Part shown: piece after piece, positions 7 to 17,379 of the stretch | Numbering within the stretch: the first letter of the stretch is position 1 | Layout: each line of letters opens with the position of its first letter | DNA from: a virus | Length of the DNA: 31,890 nucleotides | Strand: one strand, 5' to 3' | IMG/VR virus record: IMGVR_UViG_3300029999_000020 | Location: 1 to 31,890 of that record | Notes under the pieces: generated by a model | Database searches by the model: none | What the model saw: the letters and a program-made list of their open reading frames with translations, nothing else | What the model was told of the DNA's origin: nothing | Position numbers and translations under genes: made by a program

Positions 7-477
7 TCACGCTTCCTCCTGCGTCTCTGTGCGGCGATCTGACGCCTTCTCAAGGCGGTCCCTCATGACCACACCACGAAGTTCTCCCCAGGGCACAGCG
101 TCGCTCCCAGGGCCGCGCAGGGGCCTCCAGGACGGGTGCGAGTAGCTGGGGTGCATGTACCCGAGGACCGTGTACCCGGCGTCGAACAGGTCGGCCGCCT
201 GGTCCGGGTCCGGCTCCACCACCAGCTCCACGTTGTAGCCGTACGAGAAGCGCAGGGTGTCTACCAGGTTGTCGTGCGGGGATGACCCCTCGTCTACCAG
301 CATGTCGTACTCAATGCCCTGCTCCTTCAGCCAGTCGGCCGCATTATTGCCGACCAGCACGACGTTAAACACGCTAGCCAACGCACTAAACATCATAATG
401 CCGGGCTTGATTGGGTCGTTTCCCACGATCTTGCGCAGGACACCATTGATCATGATGACACAGGTCGGCTGGCTCAT
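7..477 (-). CDS. Conserved phage protein, possible degenerate HAD-like fold
   Basis: 156-residue protein. The start is set by a perfect ATGA overlap with the stop of the upstream nucleotidyltransferase-like gene; a longer reading frame exists but would run through that gene. The order of elements (short hydrophobic strand ending INGVL, a helix, a strand VVLVGN, then a helix with WLKEQGI, and later a strand ending in VLGYMHPSYSHP) recalls the HAD phosphatase layout, but the first strand lacks the DxD nucleophile motif. If the fold is right, it is probably catalytically dead or altered. The Tyr/His/Pro/Trp-rich C-terminal part (PSYSHPSWRP) looks conserved rather than low complexity. Function unknown; the HAD idea is an inference. 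Confidence 0.7.
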   Translation of the reverse strand: MSQPTCVIMINGVLRKIVGNDPIKPGIMMFSALASVFNVVLVGNNAADWLKEQGIEYDMLVDEGSSPHDNLVDTLRFSYGYNVELVVEPDPDQAADLFDAGYTVLGYMHPSYSHPSWRPLRGPGSDAVPWGELRGVVMRDRLEKASDRRTETQEEA

Positions 478-1376
478 GGCCGGTTCCAATACGACTGCAT
501 CGCCCGGCGGATAGCCTCGTCGGCCGGGACGATGGGCTGACCGTACAACCTGGTCTCCTCTTCCTTGTGCGCCTCGCTGCCTACCTGCGTCAGCTCGTGC
601 AGCTTCTGGATAGCACCCGTCTCCTTGGCCCTCTGCCATCTCATGTTGGCGTAGTCACCGTAGCCCTTGCCCTGCGCGGAAAAGGCTGCCCGCCTGCCAG
701 TATGGATATCGTCAAAGAGAGCGGTCGCCTGGCCGACCACCAGGTGCAGCCTGGCCCCGGCGTCGTGGTAACCGGGAGTGCCCGGCTGGCTGCCGTTAAA
801 TTGGTCTAGTAGCTTATTGTAACGGTCGGAGAGAGCGGTAGCTGTCCGTGCATCATTGTCGGCCGCATCAAACCAGGACTGAGGATACTGGGAACGAGGG
901 TCGGCTGGCACCTCTGGTGGGCGCACGGTCCACTCGTCGTCCGTAACGGAGTAGGCGGCGTAAGGGTGAATAGACTCGATACTAGTCCCAGTGCCAGGAT
1001 TAAAGAAGTAAGTCGCTGTGTAAGTTGAGCCGCCAAACTTGATATTCTCTTCACCGGGCCAGACATCCTTCTTCAGTGCCTCATTGATACCGGCGGACAA
1101 TGCCGACTCGGGCAGCCCCTTGTACTGCGGATTGTTACTGGCCAGCCTGGTCATGTCCACGCCGAACAGGACGTCAAGGTCACCGTTGCCGTACTGGTTG
1201 GTGATGCCACTGCCTGCTAGCCAGATGTGCAGCCAGTACTGGGTGCCCTTGAAGCCCTGCTTTGTGAACCAGTCAGTCAAGGTGCCGATAATGTGCGACC
1301 GCACCGCTGGCTTCAGGTGGTCCCCATCGAAAAGAGCCGGGTCCAGTGTGTCACTCGGGGATGAGAAGTATGGCAT
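474..1376 (-). CDS. Nucleotidyltransferase-fold protein
   Basis: 300 residues. Residues 53-71 carry the nucleotidyltransferase signature: Gly55-Ser56, then Asp66 and Asp68 in GDLDVLFGVD, i.e. G-S-x9-D-x-D, the metal-binding arrangement of the Pol-beta-type superfamily. The N-terminal third (paired helices before the GS motif) and the region after it fit a minimal catalytic domain; the C-terminal half is helical, ends in a charged tail and has no domain I recognise. Such enzymes transfer a nucleotide to a nucleic acid, protein or small molecule; the target cannot be told here. It lies downstream of the lysis genes and overlaps the next gene by ATGA. Confident as a gene, fairly confident of the fold, no claim about substrate. 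Confidence 0.75.
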   Translation of the reverse strand: MPYFSSPSDTLDPALFDGDHLKPAVRSHIIGTLTDWFTKQGFKGTQYWLHIWLAGSGITNQYGNGDLDVLFGVDMTRLASNNPQYKGLPESALSAGINEALKKDVWPGEENIKFGGSTYTATYFFNPGTGTSIESIHPYAAYSVTDDEWTVRPPEVPADPRSQYPQSWFDAADNDARTATALSDRYNKLLDQFNGSQPGTPGYHDAGARLHLVVGQATALFDDIHTGRRAAFSAQGKGYGDYANMRWQRAKETGAIQKLHELTQVGSEAHKEEETRLYGQPIVPADEAIRRAMQSYWNRP

Positions 1377-2883: not shown

Positions 2884-3629
2884 TAGCCCACGTTCCCGCC
2901 GAGAGAGCCCCAGGCCCAGACCCCACCACCAGGCTGGCGGACGACTACGCACGGGACACCGGACGTATTGACATAGGAAATACACACCTTCCCCTGCGGG
3001 TCGATGACCATAGCCACGCCGCTCTGCACATTCGTATTCGGGACAGCCTGCCACTTGTTCTTGGTGTCCGGTCCCTGGTAGTAGAGGACACCATCGGAAC
3101 CGCGCACTGCATAGTAGATTGCGCCGTTCCAGTACGCGATACCGGGAGTCATGTCGTCTCCATTACTAGAGGGTGCCGGGGCACCGCCAAAGAAGTCATC
3201 TTCCAGCAGGGAAGTGTCGTAGTAATTGTTGCTGGCATACTGGGTGCCGTCCGCAGTCTGCGAGGTATAGCACGTTGACGGGCTGCATATGTGCGCGACA
3301 CCAGTGTAGTGCGCAGTCCACAGCTTGTAACTCGACCGGAGAATGCCGCCCGAGGCCAGCGCGCTAACAAGAGCGTCGGCATTGCTCACGCTCGTGTAGT
3401 ACATAGCGTAGCGGACACTGGCGGCCTGGGAGTTGGTAGCGTCCCCGGGCTCGACGTCTAAGCAGGTGCCCGCGCCCCCCGCGAAGACACTGATGCCAAG
3501 GACGTGTGCATTGGGGAAGCGTGCCTGTATCTCAGCGACGTTGGCGTAATTACCATTGGTGTACCCGGCGTAGTAGCTGGCACCGGACGGAAGGTCGGGC
3601 ACCGTCACAGCATCGTACATCGTCAGCAT
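2883..3629 (-). CDS. Endolysin: GH25-like/DUF1906-like glycoside hydrolase with C-terminal repeat domain
   Basis: 248 residues from the ATG giving MLTMYDAV; the upstream stop lies one base before it and a GAGG/GGGG stretch serves as ribosome site. Residues 1-145 look like a TIM-barrel glycosidase: a strand ending YYAGYTNG, then CLDVEPGDA with Asp58 and Glu60 in the place of the catalytic acids, LWTAHYTG, and GTQYASNNYYDTS resembling the end of GH25-type barrels. After a Pro/Ser linker (about 150-160), residues 161-248 hold short repeats (AYWNGAIYYAVRGSDGVLYY, VCISYV, VWAWGSLGG) like a beta-propeller or lectin-type wall-binding module. Predicted to cleave peptidoglycan glycan chains at lysis, with the holin gene overlapping its stop. 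Confidence 0.85.
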   Translation of the reverse strand: MLTMYDAVTVPDLPSGASYYAGYTNGNYANVAEIQARFPNAHVLGISVFAGGAGTCLDVEPGDATNSQAASVRYAMYYTSVSNADALVSALASGGILRSSYKLWTAHYTGVAHICSPSTCYTSQTADGTQYASNNYYDTSLLEDDFFGGAPAPSSNGDDMTPGIAYWNGAIYYAVRGSDGVLYYQGPDTKNKWQAVPNTNVQSGVAMVIDPQGKVCISYVNTSGVPCVVVRQPGGGVWAWGSLGGNVG

Positions 3630-3630
3630 A

Positions 3631-3882
3631 TTAGTACCCCAGGTCCTCTGGGTCCTTGGTCGGCACGGTGTAAGGAGTCGTGACCTCCATGCCATTGCTG
3701 CCGGGGATTGCCTTAGTGGGGGCCTCAGTGATGCCGTACCCCTTCACACTGAGCTGCTTGCGGGCATCCCAGAAGCCCTCTTCGACCAGGCCGCCACGAT
3801 TCTGGACAACCTTCTTATAGGTGCCGTCAGTTGCGCCCTCATCCAGTTCACGAATCACTGACCGGGTAACAGGTAACGCCAT
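3631..3882 (-). CDS. Hypothetical protein upstream of endolysin
   Basis: 83 residues, ATG start with AAGGG upstream. A charged N-terminal helix (SVIRELDEG) is followed by GLVEEGFWDARKQLSVKGYGI and a Pro/Thr-rich tail. No TM segment, signal or known motif. It ends one base before the endolysin start, so the two are probably translationally coupled. Function unknown. Confidence 0.65.
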   Translation of the reverse strand: MALPVTRSVIRELDEGATDGTYKKVVQNRGGLVEEGFWDARKQLSVKGYGITEAPTKAIPGSNGMEVTTPYTVPTKDPEDLGY

Positions 3883-3900
3883 TATCTTTTCCCTTCGTCC

Positions 3901-4923
3901 TTAACCATTATACTGCTTATCGTACTCATCACGACTCAACCCGGAGTCTTCCACCTTATGCTTGTTATGCACCCAGGAAACTGCCTGCGCCTGGTGCGGC
4001 ATCATACCCATCTCATCCGCAGCAATCTGATGGCCCTCTTCGATCTTCCCGTACCTGGCCTTGCCACCAAGACCACGGTTAACGCCCCAGCCTAACGTGC
4101 GCCCGACACCAATGTCATGTGACCGTCCGTCAATAGTGGCTCGCCGGGAATGCTTCGGGTCACGGATGTTCTGGTAATACGCACCGGTCTTGACTTCCAT
4201 CGGCAGCACCTGCTCGGCTGTCTTCTCTCCACCAAGCAACTCGTGCGCCTGCCCAATAGAAGCGACAGAGGACACGTGCTTCAGCATTGTCCCCGCAACA
4301 TGCGGCTGCGCGCGAGCGGTGTCCGCCGCTGTATTGGCGACAGCACTAGCGTGCTCGTGCGCGGCAGTAACCTCCGCCATCACCGCAGGCGAACCCAAGC
4401 CCTTCTTATCAGCGTTCTTCGCAGCGGCGACTGCTCCCTGTGTCTTCGACACAACAGCAGAGGTAGCATTAGCCTGGTTTACATGGCGCATGTCACTGCT
4501 ATTAATGTCCCAGGCTGCGTGCGAAGCAGGCACACTCTTCTCGTAGGTCATACCAGCGTGACTAGGTGACACCACGGCCAGCGCTCCCGCGCCACGGTCG
4601 GCTGCCTGTTGGCGCTCGCCCTTCGACATATTGTGGAACGCATCCAGCTCTGCCCCGCGCAGCCTCTGCCGTCCTGGCCGCTGCACGCCCTCCTTGTAAC
4701 CTTGCGCGCCCTCAATAGGCTTGCCCGGATCGATGTGTGAGCCAATACGCACGGCATCACGATGGCTGCGGTCATACCACTGACCACCAGAGCGACGCTC
4801 ACTAGGATTAGCCTCCTGCACCTCGGACTTCACTCGGTTAGCAACAGCCCTGGCACTCGTTGCCTTCGGATCAATCGGCTTAAAGCCCGACGAGTTGGAC
4901 GGATTCTCCTGTGTCCTAGCCAC
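3901..4923 (-). CDS. Alanine/histidine-rich phage protein with conserved C-terminal domain
   Basis: 340 residues, GTG start preceded by AGGAG, in an 8-base GTGGCTAG overlap with the gene before it. Residues 1-110 are charged and probably disordered. About 150-240 are helical and Ala-rich (MAEVTAAHEHASAVANTAAD). The C-terminal part has a pattern I associate with a phage family of unknown function (possibly DUF7178-like): KTGAYYQNIRDP, then a TIDGRSHDIGVG strand, then ARYGKIEEGHQIAADE and a final QAVSWVH. Being upstream of the lysis genes and downstream of the ADP-ribosyltransferase, it may be a late or virion-associated protein; that is inference. Confidence 0.7.
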   Translation of the reverse strand: MARTQENPSNSSGFKPIDPKATSARAVANRVKSEVQEANPSERRSGGQWYDRSHRDAVRIGSHIDPGKPIEGAQGYKEGVQRPGRQRLRGAELDAFHNMSKGERQQAADRGAGALAVVSPSHAGMTYEKSVPASHAAWDINSSDMRHVNQANATSAVVSKTQGAVAAAKNADKKGLGSPAVMAEVTAAHEHASAVANTAADTARAQPHVAGTMLKHVSSVASIGQAHELLGGEKTAEQVLPMEVKTGAYYQNIRDPKHSRRATIDGRSHDIGVGRTLGWGVNRGLGGKARYGKIEEGHQIAADEMGMMPHQAQAVSWVHNKHKVEDSGLSRDEYDKQYNG

Positions 4924-5287
4924 CTAAACGCTCCTGACTGTTGCGTACACTACTCTGTACGTTACCACCACTGTTCACGTCCCACACTGTCTTACCTATC
5001 CCATCGGTATCTGCACCATTCTGCCAGGCAACATCAACAGTGGGCTGCTCGTGGGTGTTGTCAAACATGCTGACCGGGCGCACAGAGCCAGGCTTAACTG
5101 ACAACTGCCTACGAATGGCAGCCTCCGGGGTGTTGGGGTCGGCGCACGTTAAGGCCGCCGCCATCAGCTTCTCCTCGGTGCTGCCCTCGGCGAAGGCTTT
5201 CATAAACTCAGCACGGTCGGTGTCATTGTTCCACGAGTGAGTTGAGTCCATCGCGCTGTCGGGGACGCGCCACCCCTGGGCTACCAC
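4916..5287 (-). CDS. Hypothetical protein
   Basis: 123 residues. The GTG start has AGGAGG four bases upstream and overlaps the stop of the ADP-ribosyltransferase-like gene by 7 bases. Helical middle section with EFMKAFAEGSTEEKLMAAALTCAD; the C-terminal half is Asn/Gly/Thr-rich (WNNDTD near the start, NGADTDGIGKTVWDVNSGGN near the end). No motif recognised. Its tight coupling to the Arr-like gene makes it a candidate partner, without direct evidence. Confidence 0.65.
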   Translation of the reverse strand: MVAQGWRVPDSAMDSTHSWNNDTDRAEFMKAFAEGSTEEKLMAAALTCADPNTPEAAIRRQLSVKPGSVRPVSMFDNTHEQPTVDVAWQNGADTDGIGKTVWDVNSGGNVQSSVRNSQERLGG

Positions 5288-5970
5288 ATCTCCTCCTGCT
5301 TTACCTTCGGCGCGAACGGATACGCGCCCGGGTCGTAGCCCTGCTCGTCTTCCATCTCTGACCGGTAGGATTCCTTGGCGTCGGCGAACTGCACCTCATT
5401 CATGACACGCAATGGCTTCTTCGACTGGAATGCCTCGGCCGAGTCGCTGTATCCCGCGCGGGTGTCAGCGTCCTCGGCGTCAATCTGCACCGGGCCAGTT
5501 GGCTGCACCCTGTAGACATGGGGACGCGCCGAAGTACTGCCATTGTTCACCTTGTTCTCCTGCGCAACCTTTGCGGCCGAGTAAGCGTGATGAAGCTCTG
5601 TGGCGGCAAAGACGTGCTCGTGGTTCTCGTCCATGGTCTTGCCGTGCGCCGCCGCGCCACCAGTACTTTGCCCTGGGTAGTTGCCAGGCCTGCCGGGTGT
5701 GATCAGTGACCCAGGCTTCAACCGGGCGGACGTGCCGTGATACAGCTCCTCGGGTACCATCCCAGTGGCCCGGCCCTTCAGTAGCCGTTCGTCCTTCAGC
5801 TCTGGCTGAATATGCTTCGACTTAGCGTACTGCGACTGCTCCTCGGGCACCAGATGCTGCCGCTTGTCCTGATTCTGGGCGGGCGCTACCTTACGGAACA
5901 GCACACCCTGCTGGCCGGGCCCCTTAGGGTCCGGGCGCTCATCGTATGCACTGAAGACCTTGGCTACCAT
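5281..5970 (-). CDS. Arr-like (rifampin-type) ADP-ribosyltransferase domain protein
   Basis: 229 residues from ATG at 5970; an in-frame GTG at 6009 would add 13 residues and overlap the upstream gene by 29 bases, so the start is uncertain. Residues 1-70 are charged and unlike anything I know. Residues 75-193 follow the Arr rifampin ADP-ribosyltransferase pattern in order: LYHGTSARLKPGSLITPGR (76-94), EHVFAATELHHAYSAAKVA (118-136), HVYRVQPTGPVQIDAED (151-167) and KKPLRVMNEV (184-193). His78 of YHGT and Asp164 line up with the catalytic His and Asp recalled for Arr; the catalytic Tyr seems to be Phe121. Arr transfers ADP-ribose from NAD to rifampin. A phage copy may instead modify a host protein, as T4 Alt does, but the target is unknown. 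Confidence 0.75.
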   Translation of the reverse strand: MVAKVFSAYDERPDPKGPGQQGVLFRKVAPAQNQDKRQHLVPEEQSQYAKSKHIQPELKDERLLKGRATGMVPEELYHGTSARLKPGSLITPGRPGNYPGQSTGGAAAHGKTMDENHEHVFAATELHHAYSAAKVAQENKVNNGSTSARPHVYRVQPTGPVQIDAEDADTRAGYSDSAEAFQSKKPLRVMNEVQFADAKESYRSEMEDEQGYDPGAYPFAPKVKQEEMW

Positions 5971-5980
5971 GCTGTGCCCA

Positions 5981-6367
5981 TCATGACGTGCTGCTAGTTG
6001 ACGAGCCACCGTGCCGCGTGGTCTGTGTCTGCGTACCGGCCCCGCCCACTGTCACCGGGGGCGGAAGAACCGTGAACCCAACTGAAGTGCCGGCCGAAGC
6101 GCCGCCAGCAGTAGGAGCTGCTGTGGATGACTGAGCCGCGCTCGATGGTGCCGTGGTGGACACTGGCGTGGCGGCCATTGATTTACCGGGCAGCATCTTG
6201 GTGTTAGCGGGTGCCGACGTGCTAGTAGCATGTTCCACCGACGTGTTACCACCGTGCAACGCCGCCGCCGACGTACCACCGAAGGCGGCGCCAGTTAACG
6301 CAGTGACTACCGCAGCACGCTTGACAAACTTACCGAACTGCGGGTGGCTGAGAGATCCTTGACTCAT
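5981..6367 (-). CDS. Ser/Thr/Ala-rich protein with possible signal or anchor segment
   Basis: 128 residues, ATG start. A basic patch (FGKFVKR) precedes a weakly hydrophobic Ala-rich segment at about 17-37 (AAVVTALTGAAFGGTSAAAL), ending with a possible TSA-AAL type signal peptidase site. The rest is low complexity, rich in Ser, Thr, Ala and Pro, ending in a Gly/Ser/Thr tail. This is what a secreted or surface-exposed actinobacterial protein looks like, but the hydrophobic core is marginal. It lies directly upstream of the Arr-like gene. Confidence 0.6.
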   Translation of the reverse strand: MSQGSLSHPQFGKFVKRAAVVTALTGAAFGGTSAAALHGGNTSVEHATSTSAPANTKMLPGKSMAATPVSTTAPSSAAQSSTAAPTAGGASAGTSVGFTVLPPPVTVGGAGTQTQTTRHGGSSTSSTS

Positions 6368-6369
6368 GA

Positions 6370-6939
6370 TTACCAGCTCGTATCTGGGAGGTAAGGGGCC
6401 ATGACGCGGGCCACTGCGGGGTCGATACGCTCTCGGTTAGTAGCTGACTCAGGATTAACACCGTAGCGACGGTAGACCTTAGCCATCTCGGCATTGGGTG
6501 TCTCCTCGGGTGCGCGGCCATGCATATACCGTTCCACCGGGTCCATCATGGACGTGAAGCGCTGGGTCAGGATGACGTTGCCACTGCTCTGTGCCGTCAT
6601 CATCTGGTTGGTGATACCACTGTCGGGGTTGAAGTCATTGCTCCAGTAGTATGCAGTCATCGGCTGCTTGGTATCCCTGTGGATGCCACGCTGATAGGCG
6701 CGTTCACCCAGCCTGTTCCGCAGCAGTGCCTCTGCGGGGTTCCCCTTGCCCTCCTGCTTGGACTGATAGGTCCCGAGGTAGCCCGCAGGCCAATCAGCTT
6801 CGCCCAGCCTGTTGGCACCACGGCGTGCCCTATCTAAGGCACTCTGGCCGGACGGGGCAGCGGCAGGGTCGCCGCCACTCCCCACCGTGGTTATGTTCGT
6901 AGCATTCCACGGCTGGCCTACGATGCCCCAGTTTGACAT
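6370..6939 (-). CDS. Hypothetical protein
   Basis: 189 residues, ATG directly following the TAA stop of the upstream gene. The N-terminal 35 residues are Gly/Ala/Pro-rich; the rest mixes Arg-rich helical stretches (ALLRNRLGERAYQRGIHRD) with aromatic segments (AYYWSNDFNPDSGI) and a C-terminal VARVMAPYLPDTSW. No catalytic motif recognised. It belongs to a run of short coupled genes and may be structural or virion-associated; this is only positional. Confidence 0.65.
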   Translation of the reverse strand: MSNWGIVGQPWNATNITTVGSGGDPAAAPSGQSALDRARRGANRLGEADWPAGYLGTYQSKQEGKGNPAEALLRNRLGERAYQRGIHRDTKQPMTAYYWSNDFNPDSGITNQMMTAQSSGNVILTQRFTSMMDPVERYMHGRAPEETPNAEMAKVYRRYGVNPESATNRERIDPAVARVMAPYLPDTSW

Positions 6940-7170
6940 TTAGAAGGAACCTGCCCCCGCCTGCGGGTTCGGCGGCTGGCTGCCTAATGCGTTAGCGTAT
7001 TGCTGGGAGTATGCGCCGCCACCGGGGGTCACGGTCACCGGGTTGACTGCCATCTGCGCACCGTCATTGAAGTGAGCTGTCCTCGACTCGCCCACGTTCT
7101 GCTGCTGGCCGCTGCCCATGCCGCCGGCAACGCGCGCCCTGTATACGGGGCCGTCCGTGTAGGCAGACAT
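6940..7170 (-). CDS. Hypothetical Gly/Gln-rich small protein
   Basis: 76 residues, ATG in an ATGA overlap with the gene before. Composition is Gly, Gln, Asn and Pro heavy (GGMGSGQQQNVGES, then NPQAGAGSF at the end), so probably disordered. A gene rather than a shadow because its start and stop fit exactly between coupled neighbours. Function unknown. Confidence 0.6.
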   Translation of the reverse strand: MSAYTDGPVYRARVAGGMGSGQQQNVGESRTAHFNDGAQMAVNPVTVTPGGGAYSQQYANALGSQPPNPQAGAGSF

Positions 7171-7310
7171 CAGCTACCGTCCTTGCCGCCGTGGCCCTGC
7201 TTGAAGTTGTGCACCCGGTTGGCCTTGCCCTTGCGCTTCAGGCGCTCCTTCTTGCTGGCCTCTACGTCGTGGTGCTTCCGGTCCAGCTCGGACTTCTTGA
7301 CGTCGCTCAC
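7170..7310 (-). CDS. Small lysine-rich protein
   Basis: 46 residues starting at a GTG that overlaps the previous stop as GTGA; its own stop overlaps the next ATG. The start is about 45 codons inside a longer frame that would overlap its neighbour heavily. Very basic, with Lys/Arg/His clusters (KKSELDRKHHD, KKERLKRKGKANRV) and a Gly-rich end. It could bind nucleic acid, but composition is the only evidence. Confidence 0.55.
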   Translation of the reverse strand: MSDVKKSELDRKHHDVEASKKERLKRKGKANRVHNFKQGHGGKDGS

Positions 7311-7645
7311 TTCAGCGCCGGCCCTTCCGACCTCTTGCTCCACATATCGGAGACACCCGCGCGGGAGGGCACAATCTTCGTATTGCGACCGGTGTCCGCA
7401 TGGTTGGCGGCATTGGGGAAGAAGAGCGTGGTCTGCGGAGAGCACAGCGGGCCATGCACCTCGGCGTTGACCTCGGTCTGCTTACGGGGGGCTCCGGTCG
7501 GGCCATCGATGCTGATGCCACCGGGGACGCCGCCCTTGGCCTGAAGCTGCGTGTAGGGGGACCGGTTCCCCGACATGTTGACAACGGAATTGGGGATGCC
7601 CGCCGACCCCATAGGCTCGAACGAGGTGGTAGTCATGTCGCTCAT
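7307..7645 (-). CDS. Hypothetical protein
   Basis: 112 residues, ATG in an ATGA overlap with the HNH gene before it. N-terminal half is rich in Ser, Pro, Gly and Asn (SGNRSPYTQLQAKGGVPGG). The C-terminal half has PLCSPQTTLFFPNAANHADTG and a basic end. No motif recognised. Two competing reverse frames cover the same bases, but only this one has matching coupled boundaries. Confidence 0.6.
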   Translation of the reverse strand: MSDMTTTSFEPMGSAGIPNSVVNMSGNRSPYTQLQAKGGVPGGISIDGPTGAPRKQTEVNAEVHGPLCSPQTTLFFPNAANHADTGRNTKIVPSRAGVSDMWSKRSEGPALK

Positions 7646-8220
7646 TGTAAAGCTCCTTCTAACTCAACCCAAGCCCATGTCTCGTGGACTAGGACTCTTC
7701 GAATTGTAGGTACAGAGACACCGAACTCCCGCGCCCACGCCGAAGCCGAACCACGCACCACAGGGCGGGACTTAATTTCGCGCACGATAGCCTCAGTAAG
7801 CTTAGAGGCATGATGCTTGTCACCATAAGGGTGGTCATACCTATTATGACAGGACCGACAGAGACTAACGTAACTCAGCGGGTCGTACGGGTCGTTGTCA
7901 TGAATCTGGGCCCAGTCATACTTGGTTGCGGTGCAATCACGCACCCCTAGCTCGCGGTTGTAACAACTAGATGCCCTGCCCCTCACCTGAAGCACACGAT
8001 GATGCGCTGCATCATAGCCAGCGCCGTCACCCTTCCAGCTAGGGTGGTCCTCACCTTGAGGTAGGTGGGACGCTACGCATGAGTGCGAACAGTTACGCTG
8101 CTGCGCATACATCCACGTAGGCTTGCCGCAGCTTTCGCAGGGTCGCTCAGTGTACTTTGTATAGCTTTTGTCACGACGAACCAGCGGGTCCTTGGTTGGG
8201 TAGAGCTTGTCTGCATCCAT
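7642..8220 (-). CDS. HNH homing-type endonuclease
   Basis: 192 residues, ATG start. The N-terminal zinc knuckle pairs CESCGKPTW with the CSHSC of RNCSHSC (about 27-50). The HNH core follows: AHHRVLQVRG supplies the first histidine, and YVSLCRSCHNRYDHP supplies the Asn/His helix with its CxxC. The C-terminal 45 residues look like a helix-turn-helix, KLTEAIVREIKSR then AWAREFGVSVPTIRRVL, as in intron- or gap-encoded homing nucleases. It sits between two small low-complexity genes and is probably a mobile element cutting phage DNA lacking it. Confidence 0.9.
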   Translation of the reverse strand: MDADKLYPTKDPLVRRDKSYTKYTERPCESCGKPTWMYAQQRNCSHSCVASHLPQGEDHPSWKGDGAGYDAAHHRVLQVRGRASSCYNRELGVRDCTATKYDWAQIHDNDPYDPLSYVSLCRSCHNRYDHPYGDKHHASKLTEAIVREIKSRPVVRGSASAWAREFGVSVPTIRRVLVHETWAWVELEGALQ

Positions 8221-8237
8221 GACCTCAGGCTACCACA

Positions 8238-8459
8238 CTAGGAAGAGAGACCGGAGTTAACCTGTTGCGTTGTCCAAGCCCACGCATTGGCCGGGGTCTT
8301 CCCGAGCGGACCATTGCCCTTGGCGTCAGAAAATACCTCCTGGCCATGCGGCTCGATGTACACACTGGCAGGAGTGGGCGCAGACTGCACCGTCCAGCCA
8401 GGCACCTGAAGGGGGTAGTCAGTACTGTCCGTGTTAACAAACACTGGCGTTGCGCTCAT
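8238..8459 (-). CDS. Hypothetical small protein
   Basis: 73 residues, read from the ATG that overlaps the previous stop as ATGA; an earlier ATG five codons upstream is less likely. Sequence contains DYPLQVPGWTVQSAP and a Trp-rich segment NAWAWTTQQ. No TM segment and no motif recognised. One of several short coupled genes between the SpoVS-like gene and the lysis region. Confidence 0.6.
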   Translation of the reverse strand: MSATPVFVNTDSTDYPLQVPGWTVQSAPTPASVYIEPHGQEVFSDAKGNGPLGKTPANAWAWTTQQVNSGLSS

Positions 8460-8746
8460 TGGTTGTTCTGCCATTTCATGTTGTTGTAGTTATCAGTAGC
8501 GATACCATTCTGCGGCTTCAGCATGCCGCCCATGGTCGCCTCGGTCTGGCCTGCACTCATCCCGTTGCCACTGCCGGTCAACTTGACATGAGCTGGGCCA
8601 CCTGAATTCATTGACGCCTGCCGTGCCAGGAACGACGTCGGGACAGCCGGGGTCAGCGTACCCGCACCATTAATTCCCTGGTTCATGGCCTCGTTACGAT
8701 TCTGCGGCTGGAAGCTACCGCCACCTGGCTCCGCTGGCATAGTCAT
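8456..8746 (-). CDS. Hypothetical Gly/Asn/Gln/Met-rich protein
   Basis: 96 residues, ATG start with GAGG upstream. Composition is dominated by Gly, Asn, Gln and Met (QPQNRNEAMNQGINGAG; MSAGQTEATMGGMLKPQNG), ending NNMKWQNNQ. Probably disordered. No homology recognised. Confidence 0.6.
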   Translation of the reverse strand: MTMPAEPGGGSFQPQNRNEAMNQGINGAGTLTPAVPTSFLARQASMNSGGPAHVKLTGSGNGMSAGQTEATMGGMLKPQNGIATDNYNNMKWQNNQ

Positions 8747-8771
8747 GACACCACCTCTATTCCATTGTAAC

Positions 8772-9047
8772 CTAGTCGGCCACGACTACTCGCAATGTCA
8801 TCCCAGTTACAACACCATCCGGCATCTTGATATCGCAGAAGCCGGGCACTAGCTGGAGGTCTATCCCACGTGGTGCACAGTACCCTCGCGCGACGGCGCA
8901 GCCTTTCACCGCCTGGCCAATGGCACCCGCACCAATGGCGCGCATCAGCACTGTCTTATTGTCGTAGACACCATGGCTGATAGCCGACGCTAACTCAGGC
9001 ACGGGCGTACGGCTGCCCACCCTCAGGATCAGTTCCTCGGCCGCCAT
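8772..9047 (-). CDS. SpoVS-like (Alba-fold) protein
   Basis: 91 residues, close to the 86 of Bacillus SpoVS, with GGGAG six bases before the ATG. The characteristic centre is present: MRAIGAGAIGQAVKGCAVARGY followed by LQLVPGFCDIKMPDG and a final TLRVVVAD strand, matching the SpoVS order of AIGAGALNQAVKA-IARGF, then IPAFTDI and a C-terminal strand. SpoVS is a small Alba-like nucleic-acid-binding protein tied to sporulation and cell-division control in Bacillus. In this phage it might bind nucleic acid or interfere with host development; neither is shown. Its start lies within the 3' end of the endonuclease VII-like gene. Confidence 0.85.
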   Translation of the reverse strand: MAAEELILRVGSRTPVPELASAISHGVYDNKTVLMRAIGAGAIGQAVKGCAVARGYCAPRGIDLQLVPGFCDIKMPDGVVTGMTLRVVVAD

Positions 9048-9498
9048 ATTGTGCTCCCGTTATTGTATCCAGGATAGCACGAGCGGGAGGCGACATCAGA
9101 TATTCATACCCGCGCAGAAAGAACTCAGGGTCATCGTGAGCAGCCCGGCCGAGCACGTTTCTATTGCAGTTAACGCAAAGGAGACCCCTAACGCATTTAC
9201 GACAGGCGTACTTAGCATCGTGACCTTCGGTGCAATGATGATCGTGGTCAACAGCTAACCTCTTCTTCTTCCCCTGTGCTCGCTGGCACAGTGCACACCT
9301 GCCACCCTGTGCCTTATAGATAGCCCAGTAGTCGGCACCGCTGATGCCCTTGGTCTCGGCAACACGCCTGTCGTGTGCAGCTAGTGCCCGCTGCTTACGT
9401 AACCCCCTGTCGCACGAGGTACAGTACTTCAAATGGGTGCGGCTCTTCGACTTCTTCCTGCCGCAGTTCTGACATACTTTGCCGGTCCACGCGCTCAA
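8995..9498 (-). CDS. Recombination endonuclease VII-like protein
   Basis: 167 residues from a TTG start; AAGGA lies six bases upstream and the previous stop is within that ribosome site. N-terminal zinc knuckles (CQNCGRKK, CTSCDR) precede the endonuclease VII core: GRCALCQRAQG, then LAVDHDHHCTEGH (DHDH carrying the catalytic His) and VRGLLCVNCNRNVLG. This is the fold of T4 gp49, which resolves Holliday junctions and branched DNA before packaging; related genes also occur as mobile elements. It lies between the DUF3310 and SpoVS-like genes, overlapping the latter by 53 bases. Confidence 0.9.
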   Translation of the reverse strand: MSAWTGKVCQNCGRKKSKSRTHLKYCTSCDRGLRKQRALAAHDRRVAETKGISGADYWAIYKAQGGRCALCQRAQGKKKRLAVDHDHHCTEGHDAKYACRKCVRGLLCVNCNRNVLGRAAHDDPEFFLRGYEYLMSPPARAILDTITGAQYGGRGTDPEGGQPYARA

Positions 9499-9507
9499 GG
9501 TGCATCC

Positions 9508-9747
9508 TTAGAACAGGGTGAGCTGACCATCTATCTGCAGGTTCTTCAGCCGGTTGATCTCACGGTGAATGTAGAAGCATGCCTTCTCTAGGTCCTCCAC
9601 CTCCTTCGCTGGGTCCTTTACACCAGCGCGCCACACGTATTTGATGGCGTTGCCACGGTTGTTGTTGAACCACTCTGTTACGTCCAGGCACTCGATGCCA
9701 TTGGGCAGGCTCGTGTAATGATGCGGATGATGGACGGAATCGCTCAC
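9508..9747 (-). CDS. DUF3310 (SaV-like) protein
   Basis: 79 residues from a GTG overlapping the HNH stop as GTGA. The DUF3310 pattern is nearly complete: VHHPHHYTSLPNGIECLDV, then RGNAIKYVWRAG, then EDLEKACFYIHREINRLK. The family is common in phages and sometimes labelled nucleotide kinase-like on weak evidence, so I give no function. The domain begins right at this GTG. The reading frame remains open upstream through the whole HNH gene to an ATG at 10128, where SDPVNH, the usual first residues of this domain, appears again. Confidence 0.85.
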   Translation of the reverse strand: MSDSVHHPHHYTSLPNGIECLDVTEWFNNNRGNAIKYVWRAGVKDPAKEVEDLEKACFYIHREINRLKNLQIDGQLTLF

Positions 9748-10028
9748 AATGGCACGTGTTCCTTCCGGTGGCAGTTCGCGCAAAGCACTTCGCATAACGC
9801 TATCTCCTGTAGTATCCGGTCCCAACTCCACGTCCCCCGGTACAGTCGCGCTACCGTAGAGGTCTTGGTTGCCGGGTCCAGATGGTGGAAGTCCAGGCAC
9901 CTCGGATCGTCTTCCCCACAACGAGCGCAACCCAGCTCGGTCTTCATTGCGTTTAGCTTTTCCTTCTTCTCGGCTCGGTACTTCCTGTGCCGGTCGTTGT
10001 AGTACCCCGGCGGTCGTACGTAGGGCAT
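9744..10028 (-). CDS. HNH endonuclease, likely insertion in a DUF3310 gene
   Basis: 94 residues from an ATG with AGGAG seven bases upstream. After a basic N-terminal region (RHRKYRAEKKEKLNAMKTEL) comes the compact HNH core: GCARCGEDDP (CxxC), CLDFHHLDPATK (His pair), and EIALCEVLCANCHRKEH (second CxxC and final His). This is the short, free-standing HNH type with a CxxC pair on each side. It ends in a GTGA overlap with the DUF3310 gene. The Shine-Dalgarno of its own suggests independent expression. Confidence 0.85.
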   Translation of the reverse strand: MPYVRPPGYYNDRHRKYRAEKKEKLNAMKTELGCARCGEDDPRCLDFHHLDPATKTSTVARLYRGTWSWDRILQEIALCEVLCANCHRKEHVPL

Positions 10029-10120
10029 CTTCTTTCTCCTGATGGTTAACCGGGTCCGAGTGGCCCTTTCCTGCGGGCACCCACTCGACCGCCCCAGCCT
10101 GGGCGGAAGCCTCTGCGTGA

Positions 10121-10996
10121 TCACTCATGCTCATACACCTTACACTTCGCGCAGCCGGTGTCTTCATCCTGGCCGTCGAACGGGCAGGCTGGCACGGGTG
10201 CCGCTCCATCAAGGGCATCCACTATCGACTGGGCCTTGTCTAACAGTGGCTCGTAGATACTGGGGGTGAGCTTGACCGTGAACTCCTTAGTCTGTTGATT
10301 ACTCTTAAACTCGTAGAGCAGCACCGCCGTGCTAAAGTCCAGCCCCATTGACCGAGCCATGTACAGGTAGATATTAGTCTGCCTGATGTGGCTGACGAAC
10401 GGGCGGCGCAGGTCCTTCCAGATACTGTCGTAGTCGTAGACACCGATGTCCTTGTAGTAGTGCTGAGCCATCAGCTTGGGCGCGTCACGACGCACTGTGC
10501 CGGGCCCGATGGTCTTTATCTCAACCAGATACCCGGGATAGCCCATCGCCCCGTCCTCGCGCCCACGGAGCCGCAGGGGGGTATCCTCCAGGGCTACCTC
10601 CTTGTACTCCCAGAGGTGGCCATAGCACTGGGTATAGTCATGCTCCTGATCGTACATCAGCGGTTCAAGTTCGTTGCCGGTTTGCTTGCCGCAACAGATG
10701 CAACGCCACACCCCCCAGAGCTTGCCGGTCTGCCGCATCCGGCGCTGCCACTTCTGCTCTACCGAGTGGCCCTCATCGAAGATAGATTCCAGCGTGAAGC
10801 TGAAGTCCTCATCGATGACCACGCCCGTTGATATCCGGTAGTAGGTAGCGCGGGGGCACCAGTCAGACCTAGCCATCTCCGACGGGTAGATGTGGTCGGT
10901 TGAATGTGAATGGTCATTGAACTCAGCGAGCGCTACCTTCTTTAGCTCCGGTAAGAGGACACCGCCCTCCTTCTTGATCTTGGCACGGTCACGCAT
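10121..10996 (-). CDS. Cas4/RecB-like PD-(D/E)XK exonuclease with Fe-S-type cysteines
   Basis: 291 residues from ATG at 10996, one base after the previous stop; an ATG at 11080 with GAGG upstream would add 28 low-complexity residues and overlap the small zinc-ribbon gene by 83 bases. Cys47 in DWCPRATYYR starts the domain, His77 follows, the nuclease core has Asp148 (GREDGAMG) and Glu159-x-Lys161 (LVEIKTI), and the C-terminus ends with Cys271, Cys282 and Cys285. One early Cys plus three late ones is the Cas4/AddB type 4Fe-4S arrangement. A CICC motif at about 99-102 may add a zinc site. Probably a DNA end-resecting nuclease feeding the RecA pathway. Confidence 0.8.
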   Translation of the reverse strand: MRDRAKIKKEGGVLLPELKKVALAEFNDHSHSTDHIYPSEMARSDWCPRATYYRISTGVVIDEDFSFTLESIFDEGHSVEQKWQRRMRQTGKLWGVWRCICCGKQTGNELEPLMYDQEHDYTQCYGHLWEYKEVALEDTPLRLRGREDGAMGYPGYLVEIKTIGPGTVRRDAPKLMAQHYYKDIGVYDYDSIWKDLRRPFVSHIRQTNIYLYMARSMGLDFSTAVLLYEFKSNQQTKEFTVKLTPSIYEPLLDKAQSIVDALDGAAPVPACPFDGQDEDTGCAKCKVYEHE

Positions 10997-10997
10997 T

Positions 10998-11126
10998 CTA
11001 CCCACGGGCTTCACGCCCGCACCCGGTGCAGTAGTAGAGGTCTTCGAGGTCGAAGTAGGCAACTTCCTCTTCACAGTCATCGCAGAACCTCAGATTCCCT
11101 TCCCAGTGCCAGTCTAATTCACTCAT
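10998..11126 (-). CDS. Small zinc-ribbon protein
   Basis: 42 residues starting at the second of two adjacent ATGs, in an ATGAGTGA overlap with the WhiB-like gene. It is a compact zinc ribbon: CDDC and CTGC separated by an acidic, aromatic stretch (EEEVAYFDLEDLYY). Two CxxC pairs about 20 residues apart are enough to bind one zinc. A role as adaptor or regulator is possible but unproven. Confidence 0.6.
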   Translation of the reverse strand: MSELDWHWEGNLRFCDDCEEEVAYFDLEDLYYCTGCGREARG

Positions 11127-11490
11127 CATCGTCATCTTCCTCTCCGTCCAGCTCGGCCCGAAGAATAGCCGGGTCGTACCACTGTGCGGGCTCACCAGGT
11201 GGGAACCAGGTCCACTCAGGGCGCGGTACTCGCCCCCCTCTGAGCGGCCATTGCTTTCGTATCGCCTTCCGGTCCAGCTCACTTGTGCCACCCCACACAC
11301 CCTCCTTGCAGTTATTAACGAGCGCGAACAGCAGGCACTGCTCACGGATAGGGCAGACACCATGCTCGTTGCAGAACTCCATCGCTGTCGGCTCGTCCTC
11401 GAACCAAGGGTCGTCACCATTGATAGCCATGCCCTTGCACTTTGCGCGGGCCCACCCGTCTGGTGCCTCCACCCTCAATTTTAAGACCAC
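11119..11490 (-). CDS. WhiB-like Fe-S transcription regulator
   Basis: 123 residues from a GTG overlapping the previous stop as TAGTG. Cys18 lies in the N-terminal ARAKCKG stretch; Cys40, Cys46 and Cys52 sit in EFCNEHGVCPIREQCLLFAL, followed by the diagnostic turn EGVWGGTSELDRKAIRK. The usual order is Cys, then CxxC-x5-C; here the middle pair is spaced C-x5-C, three residues longer than usual. The C-terminal tail is Pro/Trp-rich, then very acidic. WhiB-like proteins are specific to actinobacteria and their phages and act with the primary sigma factor, sensing redox or NO. It could switch host or phage transcription. Confidence 0.9.
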   Translation of the reverse strand: MVLKLRVEAPDGWARAKCKGMAINGDDPWFEDEPTAMEFCNEHGVCPIREQCLLFALVNNCKEGVWGGTSELDRKAIRKQWPLRGGRVPRPEWTWFPPGEPAQWYDPAILRAELDGEEDDDDE

Positions 11491-11954
11491 TAGATGCACC
11501 CGCCCGGCCGGTCGCAGCAATTGGCGACGGCCTCACGCATATCTCCTATCGTGACGCGGAGGTGCTCAATTTCATCGCGAGCTAGAGCCAGCTCTGCCTG
11601 GTCAACGAGGTAGTCATCCTCTGTAAGCACGACGTACCGCTGCCGCCTGGTGTACTGGTTACTAGGCGTCTCCATGAACTCAACGGCAAATACCATCCGG
11701 CGGCCAGCCTGCGTAGCATGTATCCATGCCTTGATAAGGTCCTTTACCTTCAGGCTGTAGCTTGCCTTCTCGGTGTACTTGCATTCGATGCTACTGGTCG
11801 GAGTAGTCACGTCGTTCTTCCTCACCCATCCTGCGCCGGACTGGCTGTTGACCCTGCCACCATACCGCTCGGCCGTGTCCCGCTCCTGCTTCTGACTCCT
11901 CTTCCCTTTGCTGTGCTTACCGACAACAGGTTCACTGCGCCTAACTCTGTCCAT
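11490..11954 (-). CDS. PD-(D/E)XK endonuclease, Holliday junction resolvase-like
   Basis: 154 residues from ATG at 11954, preceded by AGGAGGAAGG. The core has Glu24 (QKQERDTAERYGGR), a GGRVNSQSGAG loop, Asp48 (RKNDVTT) and Glu57-x-Lys59 (SSIECKYTEK), then a helix YSLKVKDLIKAWIHATQAG and strand MVFAVEF. The E...GG..GS.G...D...ExK layout is that of small phage/archaeal Hjc-type resolvases. The last 40 residues are acidic, perhaps coiled coil, ending in CCDRPGGC. Overlapping the recA stop by 14 bases fits a resolvase working on RecA-made junctions. Nuclease family fairly sure; resolvase activity is inference. Confidence 0.7.
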   Translation of the reverse strand: MDRVRRSEPVVGKHSKGKRSQKQERDTAERYGGRVNSQSGAGWVRKNDVTTPTSSIECKYTEKASYSLKVKDLIKAWIHATQAGRRMVFAVEFMETPSNQYTRRQRYVVLTEDDYLVDQAELALARDEIEHLRVTIGDMREAVANCCDRPGGCI

Positions 11955-13056
11955 CAGCCGCTGCCTTCCTCCTCTTGGGTGCGGGGGCGGCACGGGCCAG
12001 GTCGTCCAGCCTGCGCGGGTCTGAACTGATTTCAAGCACCTCGGCCGCTAGCTGCTCCTGGAGTCCCTTGTCCTCGCGGATGGCTGCCTCTGTCTCGGCC
12101 CTGGACTGCCACTTCTGCCCGGCGTAATGATGCCATGAGCCACTGAGCTGGATGACACCGAAGAGGACACCCTGGGAGACGTACTCCTTGCCCAGGTCAT
12201 AGTCGCCACGATGGAAGCCGGTGGTGATGGCATTCCTGAAGTAGAAGTCCACCTCTGCCTTCTGCCTTGGCGCCGCGCTCTTATTCTTGATGGTCTCGAT
12301 GACCACCGCCTGCCCCACCTTGACCGGCTTGGGCAGACCGAAGCGCTTCTCCTCTATCCACTCAGCCCGCGCCAGCTTGGCCCGGACATAGAATGCGTAG
12401 TCCTTACCATAGCCACCAGGACTTGTCTCTGGCTTGCCGAACCGCTGGAAGGTGCCTATCTTATCCCGCCATTGGTTGACCACGATGCCAAGCATCGGCC
12501 GCTCGGTACCATCGGGACTGCGGCGCGTTGCCTTGCCTGCCTTCCTCCAGAACTTATTGAATAGCTTGGCACCGGCTGCGACGGTCGCCTCATTCATGGC
12601 GTTCTCGTCCTCCTGGTCCGGCAGCATTGCGGGATACGAATCGAGCACCAGGCAGTCGTACAACTTTGACTCGGCCGCATCCAATAGGAAGTCTAAGCCC
12701 ATCTCCATTTCCTGGGTGGGTGTGACCACCACCCGGTCATTGTCCACGCCTAGCGCGGCGGCCTGGTCGGTGTCATAGATCTCGCTGGCCAGCCAGAAGG
12801 TGGTGAAGTCCTTGTCAATGGCCTGGTTGGCAGCGATGGTCTTGAAGACCAGAGCGCTCTTGCCACTGCTCTCGTGGCCGATGATCTCTGCCCACTGGTT
12901 GCCGGGCCAGCCACCACCGAGCGCCACGTCTAACGACAGGCTGCCTGTGGTGTACCGCTTGGGCACCACGATGTCGGACGCTAAGACAACGGTGTTGGGG
13001 CCCAGCTTCTTATTGCGTTCATTCACCCACGCTTGTACTTCAGGACTTAGCGCCAC
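11941..13056 (-). CDS. recA: RecA-like recombinase
   Basis: 371 residues from a GTG with GGAG upstream. The ATPase core is plain: Walker A GHESSGKS at 60-67, catalytic Glu92 in ASEIYDTD, Walker B DCLVLDS at 134-140 and the L2-like loop with KPETSPGGYGKDYAFYVRAKL. The N-terminal oligomerisation helix is short and the C-terminus has an alanine/lysine/arginine tail. It promotes strand exchange with the Cas4-like exonuclease, the resolvase and SSB. The upstream 36-residue gene overlaps it by 10 bases, so its translation may depend on that leader gene. Confidence 0.95.
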   Translation of the reverse strand: MALSPEVQAWVNERNKKLGPNTVVLASDIVVPKRYTTGSLSLDVALGGGWPGNQWAEIIGHESSGKSALVFKTIAANQAIDKDFTTFWLASEIYDTDQAAALGVDNDRVVVTPTQEMEMGLDFLLDAAESKLYDCLVLDSYPAMLPDQEDENAMNEATVAAGAKLFNKFWRKAGKATRRSPDGTERPMLGIVVNQWRDKIGTFQRFGKPETSPGGYGKDYAFYVRAKLARAEWIEEKRFGLPKPVKVGQAVVIETIKNKSAAPRQKAEVDFYFRNAITTGFHRGDYDLGKEYVSQGVLFGVIQLSGSWHHYAGQKWQSRAETEAAIREDKGLQEQLAAEVLEISSDPRRLDDLARAAPAPKRRKAAADGQS

Positions 13057-13157
13057 TTATTCTCCAGCTCCTCCATCTTATTGAGCACATCTACGCCGTC
13101 AATGCTCTCAGGCTTATCCTTGAGCCATTCCCTCAGCTCTTCCCACGGCTCATCCAT
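13047..13157 (-). CDS. 36-residue leader gene of recA
   Basis: Short ORF with sequence beginning MDEPWEELREWLKDKP and ending MEELENKWR, acidic and amphipathic, mostly helical. It has no convincing Shine-Dalgarno, but its ATG lies seven bases after a TAAGAT box, as in leaderless actinobacterial mRNAs. It overlaps the recA GTG by 10 bases and its last codons carry the recA ribosome site (GGAG). It may couple recA translation, or be a small RecA-binding protein. Confidence 0.55.
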   Translation of the reverse strand: MDEPWEELREWLKDKPESIDGVDVLNKMEELENKWR

Positions 13158-13164
13158 AGGATGT

Positions 13165-13193
13165 ATCTTACCATTACACGTTGGGGGTGGCAA
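13165..13193 (-). promoter_or_regulatory. Candidate promoter before the recA unit
   Basis: On the minus strand TTGCCA, a 17-base spacer, then TAAGAT. The -35 matches five of six bases of TTGACA and the spacer is optimal; the -10 matches four of six. Transcription would begin about at the ATG of the 36-residue gene, giving a leaderless message. It overlaps the 3' end of the zinc-ribbon gene. Confidence 0.45.
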
Positions 13194-13581
13194 GACCAAA
13201 GTTCTTCATGCCATGAGCCTGCCGGGTGCTCTGTGCTGGTGCATTGCTGCGGGGTGACATCGCATTGCCCACCTGTCCGTCGGACATTCGCCTATCGCTG
13301 GAGTAGCCGCACAACCAGCAGTGCCCGTGGCCCTGCACGATCAGGTAGTCAGCGCCGTCGCAGTTGGGGCACAAGTCGGTCGGCTGATCCTTCACCCACT
13401 GCGGCACGTGGTTGTCGTTGTACCCCTGCTCGTAGAACTGCTGTAGCTGCTGCTGCTGTGGGCTCGCCGGGGCGGGCGGGGGGACCGCCAGGTTATGCTG
13501 CACCTGGTTGTACTGCGCGGGTGTTGAGGGTACCGTTGGGCGCGGTGTAATGCCTCGCGCCTTCTCCCAGAAGTTTGTCAT
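13174..13581 (-). CDS. Zinc-ribbon phage protein with Pro/Gln-rich region
   Basis: 135 residues from the ATG that overlaps the HNH stop as TAATG (MTNFWEKARG). Residues about 10-55 are Pro/Gln/Ala-rich with a QQQQLQQF run. A zinc ribbon follows: CPNCDGADYL and CWLCGYSS. The C-terminal third is Ser/Gly/Asn-rich. Possibly a DNA-binding accessory or replisome adaptor between polymerase and RecA genes, by position only. Confidence 0.7.
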   Translation of the reverse strand: MTNFWEKARGITPRPTVPSTPAQYNQVQHNLAVPPPAPASPQQQQLQQFYEQGYNDNHVPQWVKDQPTDLCPNCDGADYLIVQGHGHCWLCGYSSDRRMSDGQVGNAMSPRSNAPAQSTRQAHGMKNFGLATPNV

Positions 13582-14057
13582 TAGTGGCACTCCTTGTGCG
13601 GGCAGACGCCATGGTTGCTACGCCTACCGCAGTTGCAGTTATAGCATAGCACCTGAAAGCGGTCAGCATCCTCAAAGTTAGTCCTCACTAAGATTCTGAA
13701 AATCTTATCCGGGCTCACGTTTCGGCCTTCTCCATTAGGTCCAGCCAACTGACGCCTATGCTCCGCGCCATCATTATTCACATGGTCCAGCGTGAGGAAT
13801 ATGAACTCAGTCTCACCACAGCACGCACACTTACTCCCATAGTATTCGAATACCTGCTGCTTGACAGCCAGCCTATGGACCATGCCATAGTTTCTTTGCC
13901 GTTCCTGCTGGTCTGGGCGGTTTTGCACGTACTCACGCGCGTACTTGTTGTAGCAGTCCCGGCAGTACGTGCGTATCTTTACCTTCCCCTTTCGCCTGAC
14001 TTCGTAGTCGGCTATCGGCTTTGGTAAATGACATCTCGAACAGTCCTTTGTCTCCAT
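13581..14057 (-). CDS. HNH endonuclease with N-terminal zinc knuckles
   Basis: 158 residues, ATG start. Two N-terminal CxxC pairs (CSRC at 6-9 and CRDC at 32-35) precede the nuclease core: SKCACCGETE (77-80), LTLDHVNNDG with Asp91-His92, and VLCYNCNCGRR with the Asn helix. It lies between the polymerase gene and the zinc-ribbon gene, with its own promoter candidate just upstream. It is a paralogue of the plus-strand HNH protein at 25833 and probably a free-standing homing-type nuclease. It has no clear Shine-Dalgarno. Confidence 0.9.
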   Translation of the reverse strand: METKDCSRCHLPKPIADYEVRRKGKVKIRTYCRDCYNKYAREYVQNRPDQQERQRNYGMVHRLAVKQQVFEYYGSKCACCGETEFIFLTLDHVNNDGAEHRRQLAGPNGEGRNVSPDKIFRILVRTNFEDADRFQVLCYNCNCGRRSNHGVCPHKECH

Positions 14058-14070
14058 ACTTATAGCTTAC

Positions 14071-14099
14071 ATTATGTGGACACCGAAACATAAAGTCAG
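14071..14099 (-). promoter_or_regulatory. Candidate promoter before the HNH gene
   Basis: CTGACT, a 17-base spacer, CATAAT (five of six to TATAAT) on the minus strand, in the AT-rich gap between polymerase stop and HNH start. The message would have a leader of only about six bases. A promoter next to a mobile nuclease would give it expression independent of the operon. Confidence 0.4.
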
Positions 14100-17376: not shown

Positions 17377-17379
17377 GAC

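What the first reader, a model, noticed from the sequence alone, without database searches (positions are those of the whole stretch)
5281..5970. Phage-encoded Arr-like ADP-ribosyltransferase
The four Arr signature blocks appear in order, including YHGT, LKPG-x-LITPGR, HVYRVQPTGP and PLRVMNEV. Antibiotic-modifying Arr proteins are known in bacteria; a copy coupled to phage late genes suggests a host-directed modification, by analogy with T4 Alt. The presumed catalytic Tyr is Phe121, so activity or specificity may differ. There is also an uncharacterised 70-residue N-terminal extension.
Basis: partly seen in the sequence, partly recalled or inferred. Interest (0 to 1): 0.75.

Follow-up and report, generated by a model that had tools for sequence, protein, structure and literature searches.

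The report
Phage Arr-fold ADP-ribosyltransferase, probably host-directed
A soil phage related to Streptomyces phage BRock carries a gene built like the bacterial enzyme that inactivates the antibiotic rifampin, but it lacks the antibiotic-binding part, and its relatives lie beside phage head genes, so it more likely modifies a component of the infected cell.

Summary
Window 5281-5970 (minus strand, 229 aa) encodes an Arr-type ADP-ribosyltransferase domain: Pfam Arr-ms 46.9 bits (cut-off 25), and the best solved-structure match of an AlphaFold model is Arr-ms (2HW2). His78 and Asp164 match Arr-ms H19 and D84. Tyr49 is Phe121. The 70-residue N-terminal extension is predicted disordered.

It does not pass as a rifampin-inactivating Arr. 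It falls far below NCBI's equivalog cut-off (35 vs 130 bits), and the rifampin-binding loop, near-invariant in 67 bacterial homologues, is absent. It belongs to a divergent phage group. Its closest relative (54-56% identity, same Phe) comes from another BRock-like phage and lies directly upstream of scaffold and major capsid genes. More distant relatives occur in giant multidomain proteins (up to three Arr modules plus NUDIX, 2H, ParB), in two cases next to terminase.

Best reading: a phage effector that ADP-ribosylates a host target, possibly carried in the virion. Function and packaging are inferred; the window copy itself lies between replication and lysis-region genes, not among head genes. 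Solo Arr-family proteins in actinophages were already published (Iyer 2022), so this is a new variant of a known kind. The Arr-containing giant proteins appear undescribed in papers I could read.

The parts
5281..5970 (-). arr-like gene, ATG start, 229 aa (GTG 6009 gives 242 aa)
5389..5745 (-). Arr-ms (PF12120) domain
   Evidence: 45.1 bits, profile 1-97 of 99; 46.9 bits
5737..5739 (-). His78 codon (Arr-ms H19, HGT motif, end of strand 1)
5608..5610 (-). Phe121 codon (Arr-ms Y49 position)
   Evidence: also Phe in L029
5479..5481 (-). Asp164 codon (Arr-ms D84 position)
   Evidence: also Asp in L029
5746..5970 (-). N-terminal extension, about 75 residues, predicted disordered
   Evidence: no relative found among held loci
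5284..5388 (-). C-terminal helix and tail, conserved in L029
4916..5287 (-). 123-aa ORF overlapping the arr-like stop, GGAGGAG upstream of its GTG; no family
3901..4923 (-). 340-aa ORF with DUF7178, overlapping the 4916 ORF; relatives in Streptomyces phages
5981..6367 (-). 128-aa Ser/Thr/Ala-rich ORF with a hydrophobic N-terminal stretch, just upstream of the arr-like gene; no family
6370..6939 (-). homologue of BRock gp48 / Alone3 179 (upstream edge of the variable slot)
3631..3882 (-). homologue of BRock gp45 / Alone3 182 (downstream edge of the slot)
474..1376 (-). nucleotidyltransferase-like protein; the same module accompanies Arr modules in six of seven giant-protein regions

Best explanation
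The gene encodes an Arr-fold mono-ADP-ribosyltransferase that has diverged from antibiotic-inactivating Arr and serves the phage as a host-directed effector. Shown: the fold, His78 and Asp164 at the Arr catalytic positions, Phe at the Tyr position, loss of the rifampin-binding loop, and a position in a variable slot of a BRock-like genome. Inferred: it binds NAD+ between the HGT strand and the Phe121 strand (Phe can still stack on the nicotinamide), and Asp164 orients an acceptor. The acceptor is a host protein, nucleic acid or defence metabolite rather than rifamycin. The disordered N-terminus could serve delivery (possibly into the capsid, as the gene order of its closest relative suggests) or partner binding. 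The likely outcome is early take-over or counter-defence in an actinobacterial, probably Streptomyces-like, host.
For: Arr-ms HMM above cut-off. AlphaFold model with a high-confidence domain and 2HW2 as best PDB fold match, E 3.3e-8, prob 1.00, followed by the two other solved Arr structures. H78 lies in strand 1, F121 in the next strand, and D164 directly precedes a short helix, as described for Arr-ms (PMC6092378). H and D kept while the DPN..GNPT.S loop is lost; that loop is invariant or nearly so in 67 bacterial Arr. Closest relative L029: 56% aa identity over 108 codons, codon-position identity 0.66/0.71/0.34, i.e. protein-level constraint, same QID motif, Phe and tail. L029's gene lies just upstream of a scaffold-like ORF and a BRock-type major capsid gene, colinear with BRock gp148-gp144. 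Arr modules occur with NUDIX, 2H and ParB_N in proteins of about 1,000-2,070 aa, two clusters beside terminase large.
Against: No activity, target or virion proteomics. The window copy is not in the head block. L029 holds only the C-terminal half of its gene, and its upstream neighbour is off the contig. No relatives found in 50,697 phage records at tblastn sensitivity. Loss of the Tyr (to Ala) kills Arr-ms activity (PMC3138739, PMC6092378), so Phe could weaken catalysis. Tree support for grouping beyond L029 is weak.
Confidence: 0.55

Rival explanations
1. It is an antibiotic-resistance enzyme: the phage protects its host from rifamycins or related ansamycins made by soil competitors, as Iyer et al. 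2022 proposed for Arr-family proteins of actinophages.
For: Arr-ms family membership by HMM and fold; published reading for solo phage Arr proteins (PMC9503650); L005 shows that contigs filed as viral can carry canonical Arr.
Against: Rifampin-loop residues P85, N86, P93, G94, N95, P96 and S99 are all changed, Y49 is Phe, and the M[RK][DE]xL helix motif is not seen. Equivalog score 35.1 vs cut-off 130. No integration gene was recognised in the window and the kin are BRock-like phages, so a lytic life, with little time for host benefit, is more likely (inference).
Confidence: 0.15
2. It modifies a small molecule or nucleic acid used in host defence (a diffusible signal, tRNA or DNA) rather than a protein.
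For: The one known Arr substrate class is a small molecule (PMC3138739). Relatives are fused with NUDIX and 2H domains, which act on nucleotides, and with a nucleotidyltransferase-like module. Iyer et al. raise the same option.
Against: No direct evidence. Fusion partners act independently in polyvalent proteins, so they need not share a substrate.
Confidence: 0.2
3. The domain no longer catalyses transfer and works as an NAD+/ADP-ribose binder or structural protein.
For: Tyr49 replaced by Phe; changing the Tyr to Ala abolishes Arr-ms activity (PMC3138739, PMC6092378); the Tyr position is variable in phage relatives (15 Y, 6 H, 5 F of 26).
Against: His78 and Asp164 are retained, Phe is conservative, and Phe is conserved in the closest relative with its HVF and QID motifs.
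Confidence: 0.1

Closest known systems
Arr, rifampin ADP-ribosyltransferase (PF12120; Arr-ms 2HW2, Arr-2 9IBA)
   Same: Fold, HGT motif, catalytic Asp position, PTGP and P-L-R-V strands
   Different: About 27% identity to Arr-2, Phe for Tyr49, no rifampin-binding loop, 70-aa N-terminal extension, no score near the equivalog cut-off
Solo Arr-family ARTs of Gordonia, Microbacterium and PBC5 phages (Iyer et al. 2022, PMC9503650)
   Same: Phage-encoded Arr-family protein, mostly actinobacterial hosts
   Different: Those are read as antibiotic resistance; this one lacks the rifampin loop and its nearest relative lies in a head-gene cluster. Direct comparison was not possible: tblastn found no such isolate phage match
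T4 Alt and other head-packaged ARTs
   Same: Possible mode of use: an ART made with head proteins and delivered with DNA
   Different: Different ART clade by literature (R-S-E); window gene not in the head block; packaging untested
Polyvalent proteins (Iyer et al. 2017, PMC5512222)
   Same: Relatives of this Arr module sit in giant multi-enzyme phage proteins with NUDIX, 2H and ParB, some near terminase
   Different: The window protein is a solo domain; the 2017 paper's main text contains no mention of rifampin or Arr
phrog_17296 (unknown function)
   Same: Domain matches at E 3.4e-7
   Different: No function assigned

Membership tests
Arr-ms domain family (PF12120) | Profile score above curated cut-off over the full profile | tested here: met
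   46.9 bits vs 25, profile 1-97 of 99
Arr-ms domain family (PF12120) | Arr/ART fold | tested here: met
   Top PDB match 2HW2, E 3.3e-8, prob 1.00; TM-score 0.60 by Arr length, rmsd 7.7, with disordered parts in the model
Arr-ms domain family (PF12120) | Catalytic H19, Y49, D84 | tested here: inconclusive
   H and D kept, Y replaced by Phe
Rifampin ADP-ribosyltransferase (NF033144 equivalog) | Score above equivalog cut-off | tested here: not met
   35.1 vs 130 bits
Rifampin ADP-ribosyltransferase (NF033144 equivalog) | Rifampin-binding loop DPN[VL]T..K.PGNPT.S | tested here: not met
   Window reads DAEDADTRAGYSDSAEA; loop invariant or nearly so in 67 bacterial Arr
Rifampin ADP-ribosyltransferase (NF033144 equivalog) | Helix motif M[RK][DE]xL | tested here: not met
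   C-terminal helix present but motif absent; sequence SEMEDEQ, motif from PMC6092378
Rifampin ADP-ribosyltransferase (NF033144 equivalog) | ADP-ribosylates rifampin | not testable with these tools
   needs enzyme assay
Head-packaged phage ART (Alt-like use) | Gene in the head/packaging block | tested here: not met
   Window copy lies between homologues of BRock gp48 and gp45. The closest relative, L029, does lie beside scaffold and capsid genes
Head-packaged phage ART (Alt-like use) | Protein present in virions | not testable with these tools
   needs virion proteomics
Polyvalent protein | Several effector domains in one polypeptide | tested here: not met
   One recognised domain in the window protein; met by distant relatives

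The most novel reading that the evidence does not exclude
Large soil phages, at least one lineage in Streptomyces, have turned the Arr 'antibiotic-resistance' fold into a diversified arsenal of host-directed modifiers. They carry it as solo genes beside capsid genes and as up to three modules per giant polyvalent protein with NUDIX, 2H, ParB and a CD-NTase-like module. Bacterial rifampin Arr would then be one specialised branch of a conflict-enzyme family.
Probability: 0.4. Interest if true: 0.7.

Novelty: new variant of a known kind. Interest (0 to 1): 0.5.

Why it matters
Arr is known almost only as a rifamycin-resistance enzyme, and automatic annotation would count phage copies as resistance genes. 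If these copies are host-directed effectors, resistome surveys of viromes overcount. The long-standing question of what Arr does besides rifampin (endogenous target unknown in mycobacteria, PMC3138739) would gain tractable phage models.

Tried and rejected
Single-protein scans of IMG/VR with the whole protein and with the domain found no confirmed relative. tblastn of the window protein and of several relatives against isolate phages found nothing but a canonical Arr in two Acinetobacter-phage-labelled contigs. DNA megablast of window 3000-20000 and a distant search of 5740-6367: no match. L002 is a near-identical contig but ends before the gene. PADLOC: no defence family for six ORFs. Macro, NADAR or NUDIX partner in the window: none among the further ORFs scanned with Pfam; the remaining ORFs were not scanned. 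Foreign-gene idea: GC3 0.765 is like phage core genes (0.75-0.81), so no compositional sign of recent import. The N-terminal extension had no convincing match among held loci. Weak fold matches to other ART-superfamily proteins (E at or above 0.016) were treated only as superfamily kinship. The tree of about 125 columns does not resolve the phage-Arr backbone, so no origin is claimed. Rejected: the T4 Alt relation as homology, and plain rifampin resistance as the default.

Full report
What is there. On the minus strand, 5281-5970 (ATG) or 5281-6009 (GTG) is an open frame of 229 or 242 aa. Pfam gives one hit, Arr-ms, 46.9 bits against a cut-off of 25. NCBIfam's rifampin Arr equivalog reaches only 35.1 bits against 130. 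PHROG 17296 (unknown function) also matches.

Active site. Using the printed Arr-ms alignment, H19, Y49 and D84 correspond to His78, Phe121 and Asp164. In 67 bacterial homologues from GTDB genomes H19, Y49 and D84 are invariant. In 26 phage-contig domains H is nearly invariant, D is in 17, and the Tyr position is Y 15, H 6, F 5. The set of bacterial relatives was recruited with a VY.V.PTGP pattern, so it leans to canonical Arr. Published alanine changes at the three positions abolish activity (PMC3138739, PMC6092378). Phe keeps the aromatic ring, so I expect weakened or altered rather than absent catalysis; that is inference.

Rifampin site. Shin et al. 2018 list the rifampin contacts: DPN[VL], [LV]T.K[KR].P, P96, S99 and an M[RK][DE]xL helix. 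The window protein has A, E, G, S, D, S, A at P85, N86, P93, G94, N95, P96, S99, and no M[RK][DE]xL. This is the main evidence against a rifamycin substrate.

Structure. AlphaFold2 with 26 aligned sequences gives most of the domain at pLDDT 84-98, apart from the loop 102-109, and residues 1-70 at about 45-53. Foldseek ranks the three solved Arr structures first, E 3.3e-8 to 8.8e-7, probability 1.00; all others have E of 0.016 or more. His78 in strand 1, Phe121 in the next strand and Asp164 just before a short helix match the topology described for Arr-ms. Direct distances were not measurable.

The phage. The window is the whole 31,890-base IMG/VR record. DNA polymerase is 41% identical to Streptomyces phages BRock, Alone3, LuckySocke, GiJojo and pSt2308, and gene order is largely shared over the replication and following region. 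BRock and Alone3 have no PF12120 match. The arr-like gene with ORFs 5981, 4916 and 3901 (DUF7178) fills the interval between homologues of Alone3 179 and 182, where Alone3 has two small genes. Starts and stops overlap or nearly touch from 6370 down to 3901, so these genes are probably co-transcribed (inference). GC3 (0.765) is like core genes. This region lies between replication and the endolysin-bearing stretch of BRock, not in the head/tail block.

Closest relative. A pattern scan of IMG/VR found L029, whose first ORF is 54-56% identical, with HVFA, PTGPVQID.EDAD.RAGY, AFQSK and the C-terminal tail conserved. Codon-position identity 0.66/0.71/0.34 shows protein-level constraint. L029 is BRock-like: its capsid protein is 70-71% identical to BRock and Alone3, and the genes after the arr-like one are colinear with BRock gp148, gp147, gp146 and gp144, apart from an inserted HNH-type ORF. 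In BRock the portal gene directly precedes gp148, so in L029 the arr-like gene lies where portal and scaffold meet. The contig starts inside the gene, so the portal itself is not seen.

Wider family. The same scan found Arr modules in proteins of about 1,000 to 2,070 aa from records of roughly 80 to 166 kb, up to three per protein. Pfam adds NUDIX, 2H-type 2'-5' RNA ligase and ParB_N. Terminase large subunit genes are neighbours in L079 and L081. The module of window gene 474-1376 accompanies Arr in six of seven such regions, five within the same frame and one in an adjacent frame (L073). It also accompanies Arr on a Streptomyces sp. A0642 contig with a terminase 78% identical to L081's. Window 474-1376 has a GS...GDLDVLFGVD signature and weak fold similarity to CD-NTases and other nucleotidyltransferases (E 0.014, low TM), which is a lead only.

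Relation to literature. Iyer et al. 2022 already reported rifampin-ART family proteins in Gordonia and Microbacterium phages and PBC5. They read them as antibiotic resistance, while not excluding action on antiviral diffusible compounds (PMC9503650). They also place about 44% of phage ARTs in contexts suggestive of head packaging. Their 2017 polyvalent-protein paper has no mention of rifampin or Arr in its main text. So phage Arr is known, while the head-cluster context and multi-Arr polyvalent proteins appear new within the papers I could read; supplements were not readable.

Verdict. ART fold and Arr relationship: near certain. Not a rifamycin enzyme: likely (about 0.8). Host-directed effector: favoured (0.55). 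Virion delivery: plausible for L029, open for the window copy.

Noticed in passing
L077-L083 (IMG/VR records of about 80-166 kb): Giant proteins with one to three Arr modules plus NUDIX, 2H and ParB_N, two clusters beside terminase large subunit genes; possibly undescribed polyvalent proteins.
   Followed up: partly
window 474-1376: Nucleotidyltransferase-like protein conserved in all BRock-like phages, fused or adjacent to Arr modules elsewhere; weak fold similarity to CBASS CD-NTases.
   Followed up: partly
L092 9171-10300: Streptomyces sp. A0642 contig with phage terminase, the 474-type module and an Arr module in a row: an integrated or plasmid-like phage and a host pointer.
   Followed up: partly
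L006 / L008 / L057 (one 156-kb record): One phage record with two divergent Arr-like proteins, one with His at the Tyr49 position and no Asp84 equivalent.
   Followed up: no
window 20269-20757 and 28069-28548: Two paralogous ORFs, about 43% identical, looking like homing-endonuclease-type genes.
   Followed up: no
window 3901-4923: DUF7178 protein whose relatives lie near the right end of about 50-kb Streptomyces phages; function unknown.
   Followed up: no
L005 9920-10384: Canonical Arr directly upstream of a tape-measure-like ORF in a 44.9-kb contig filed as viral.
   Followed up: no
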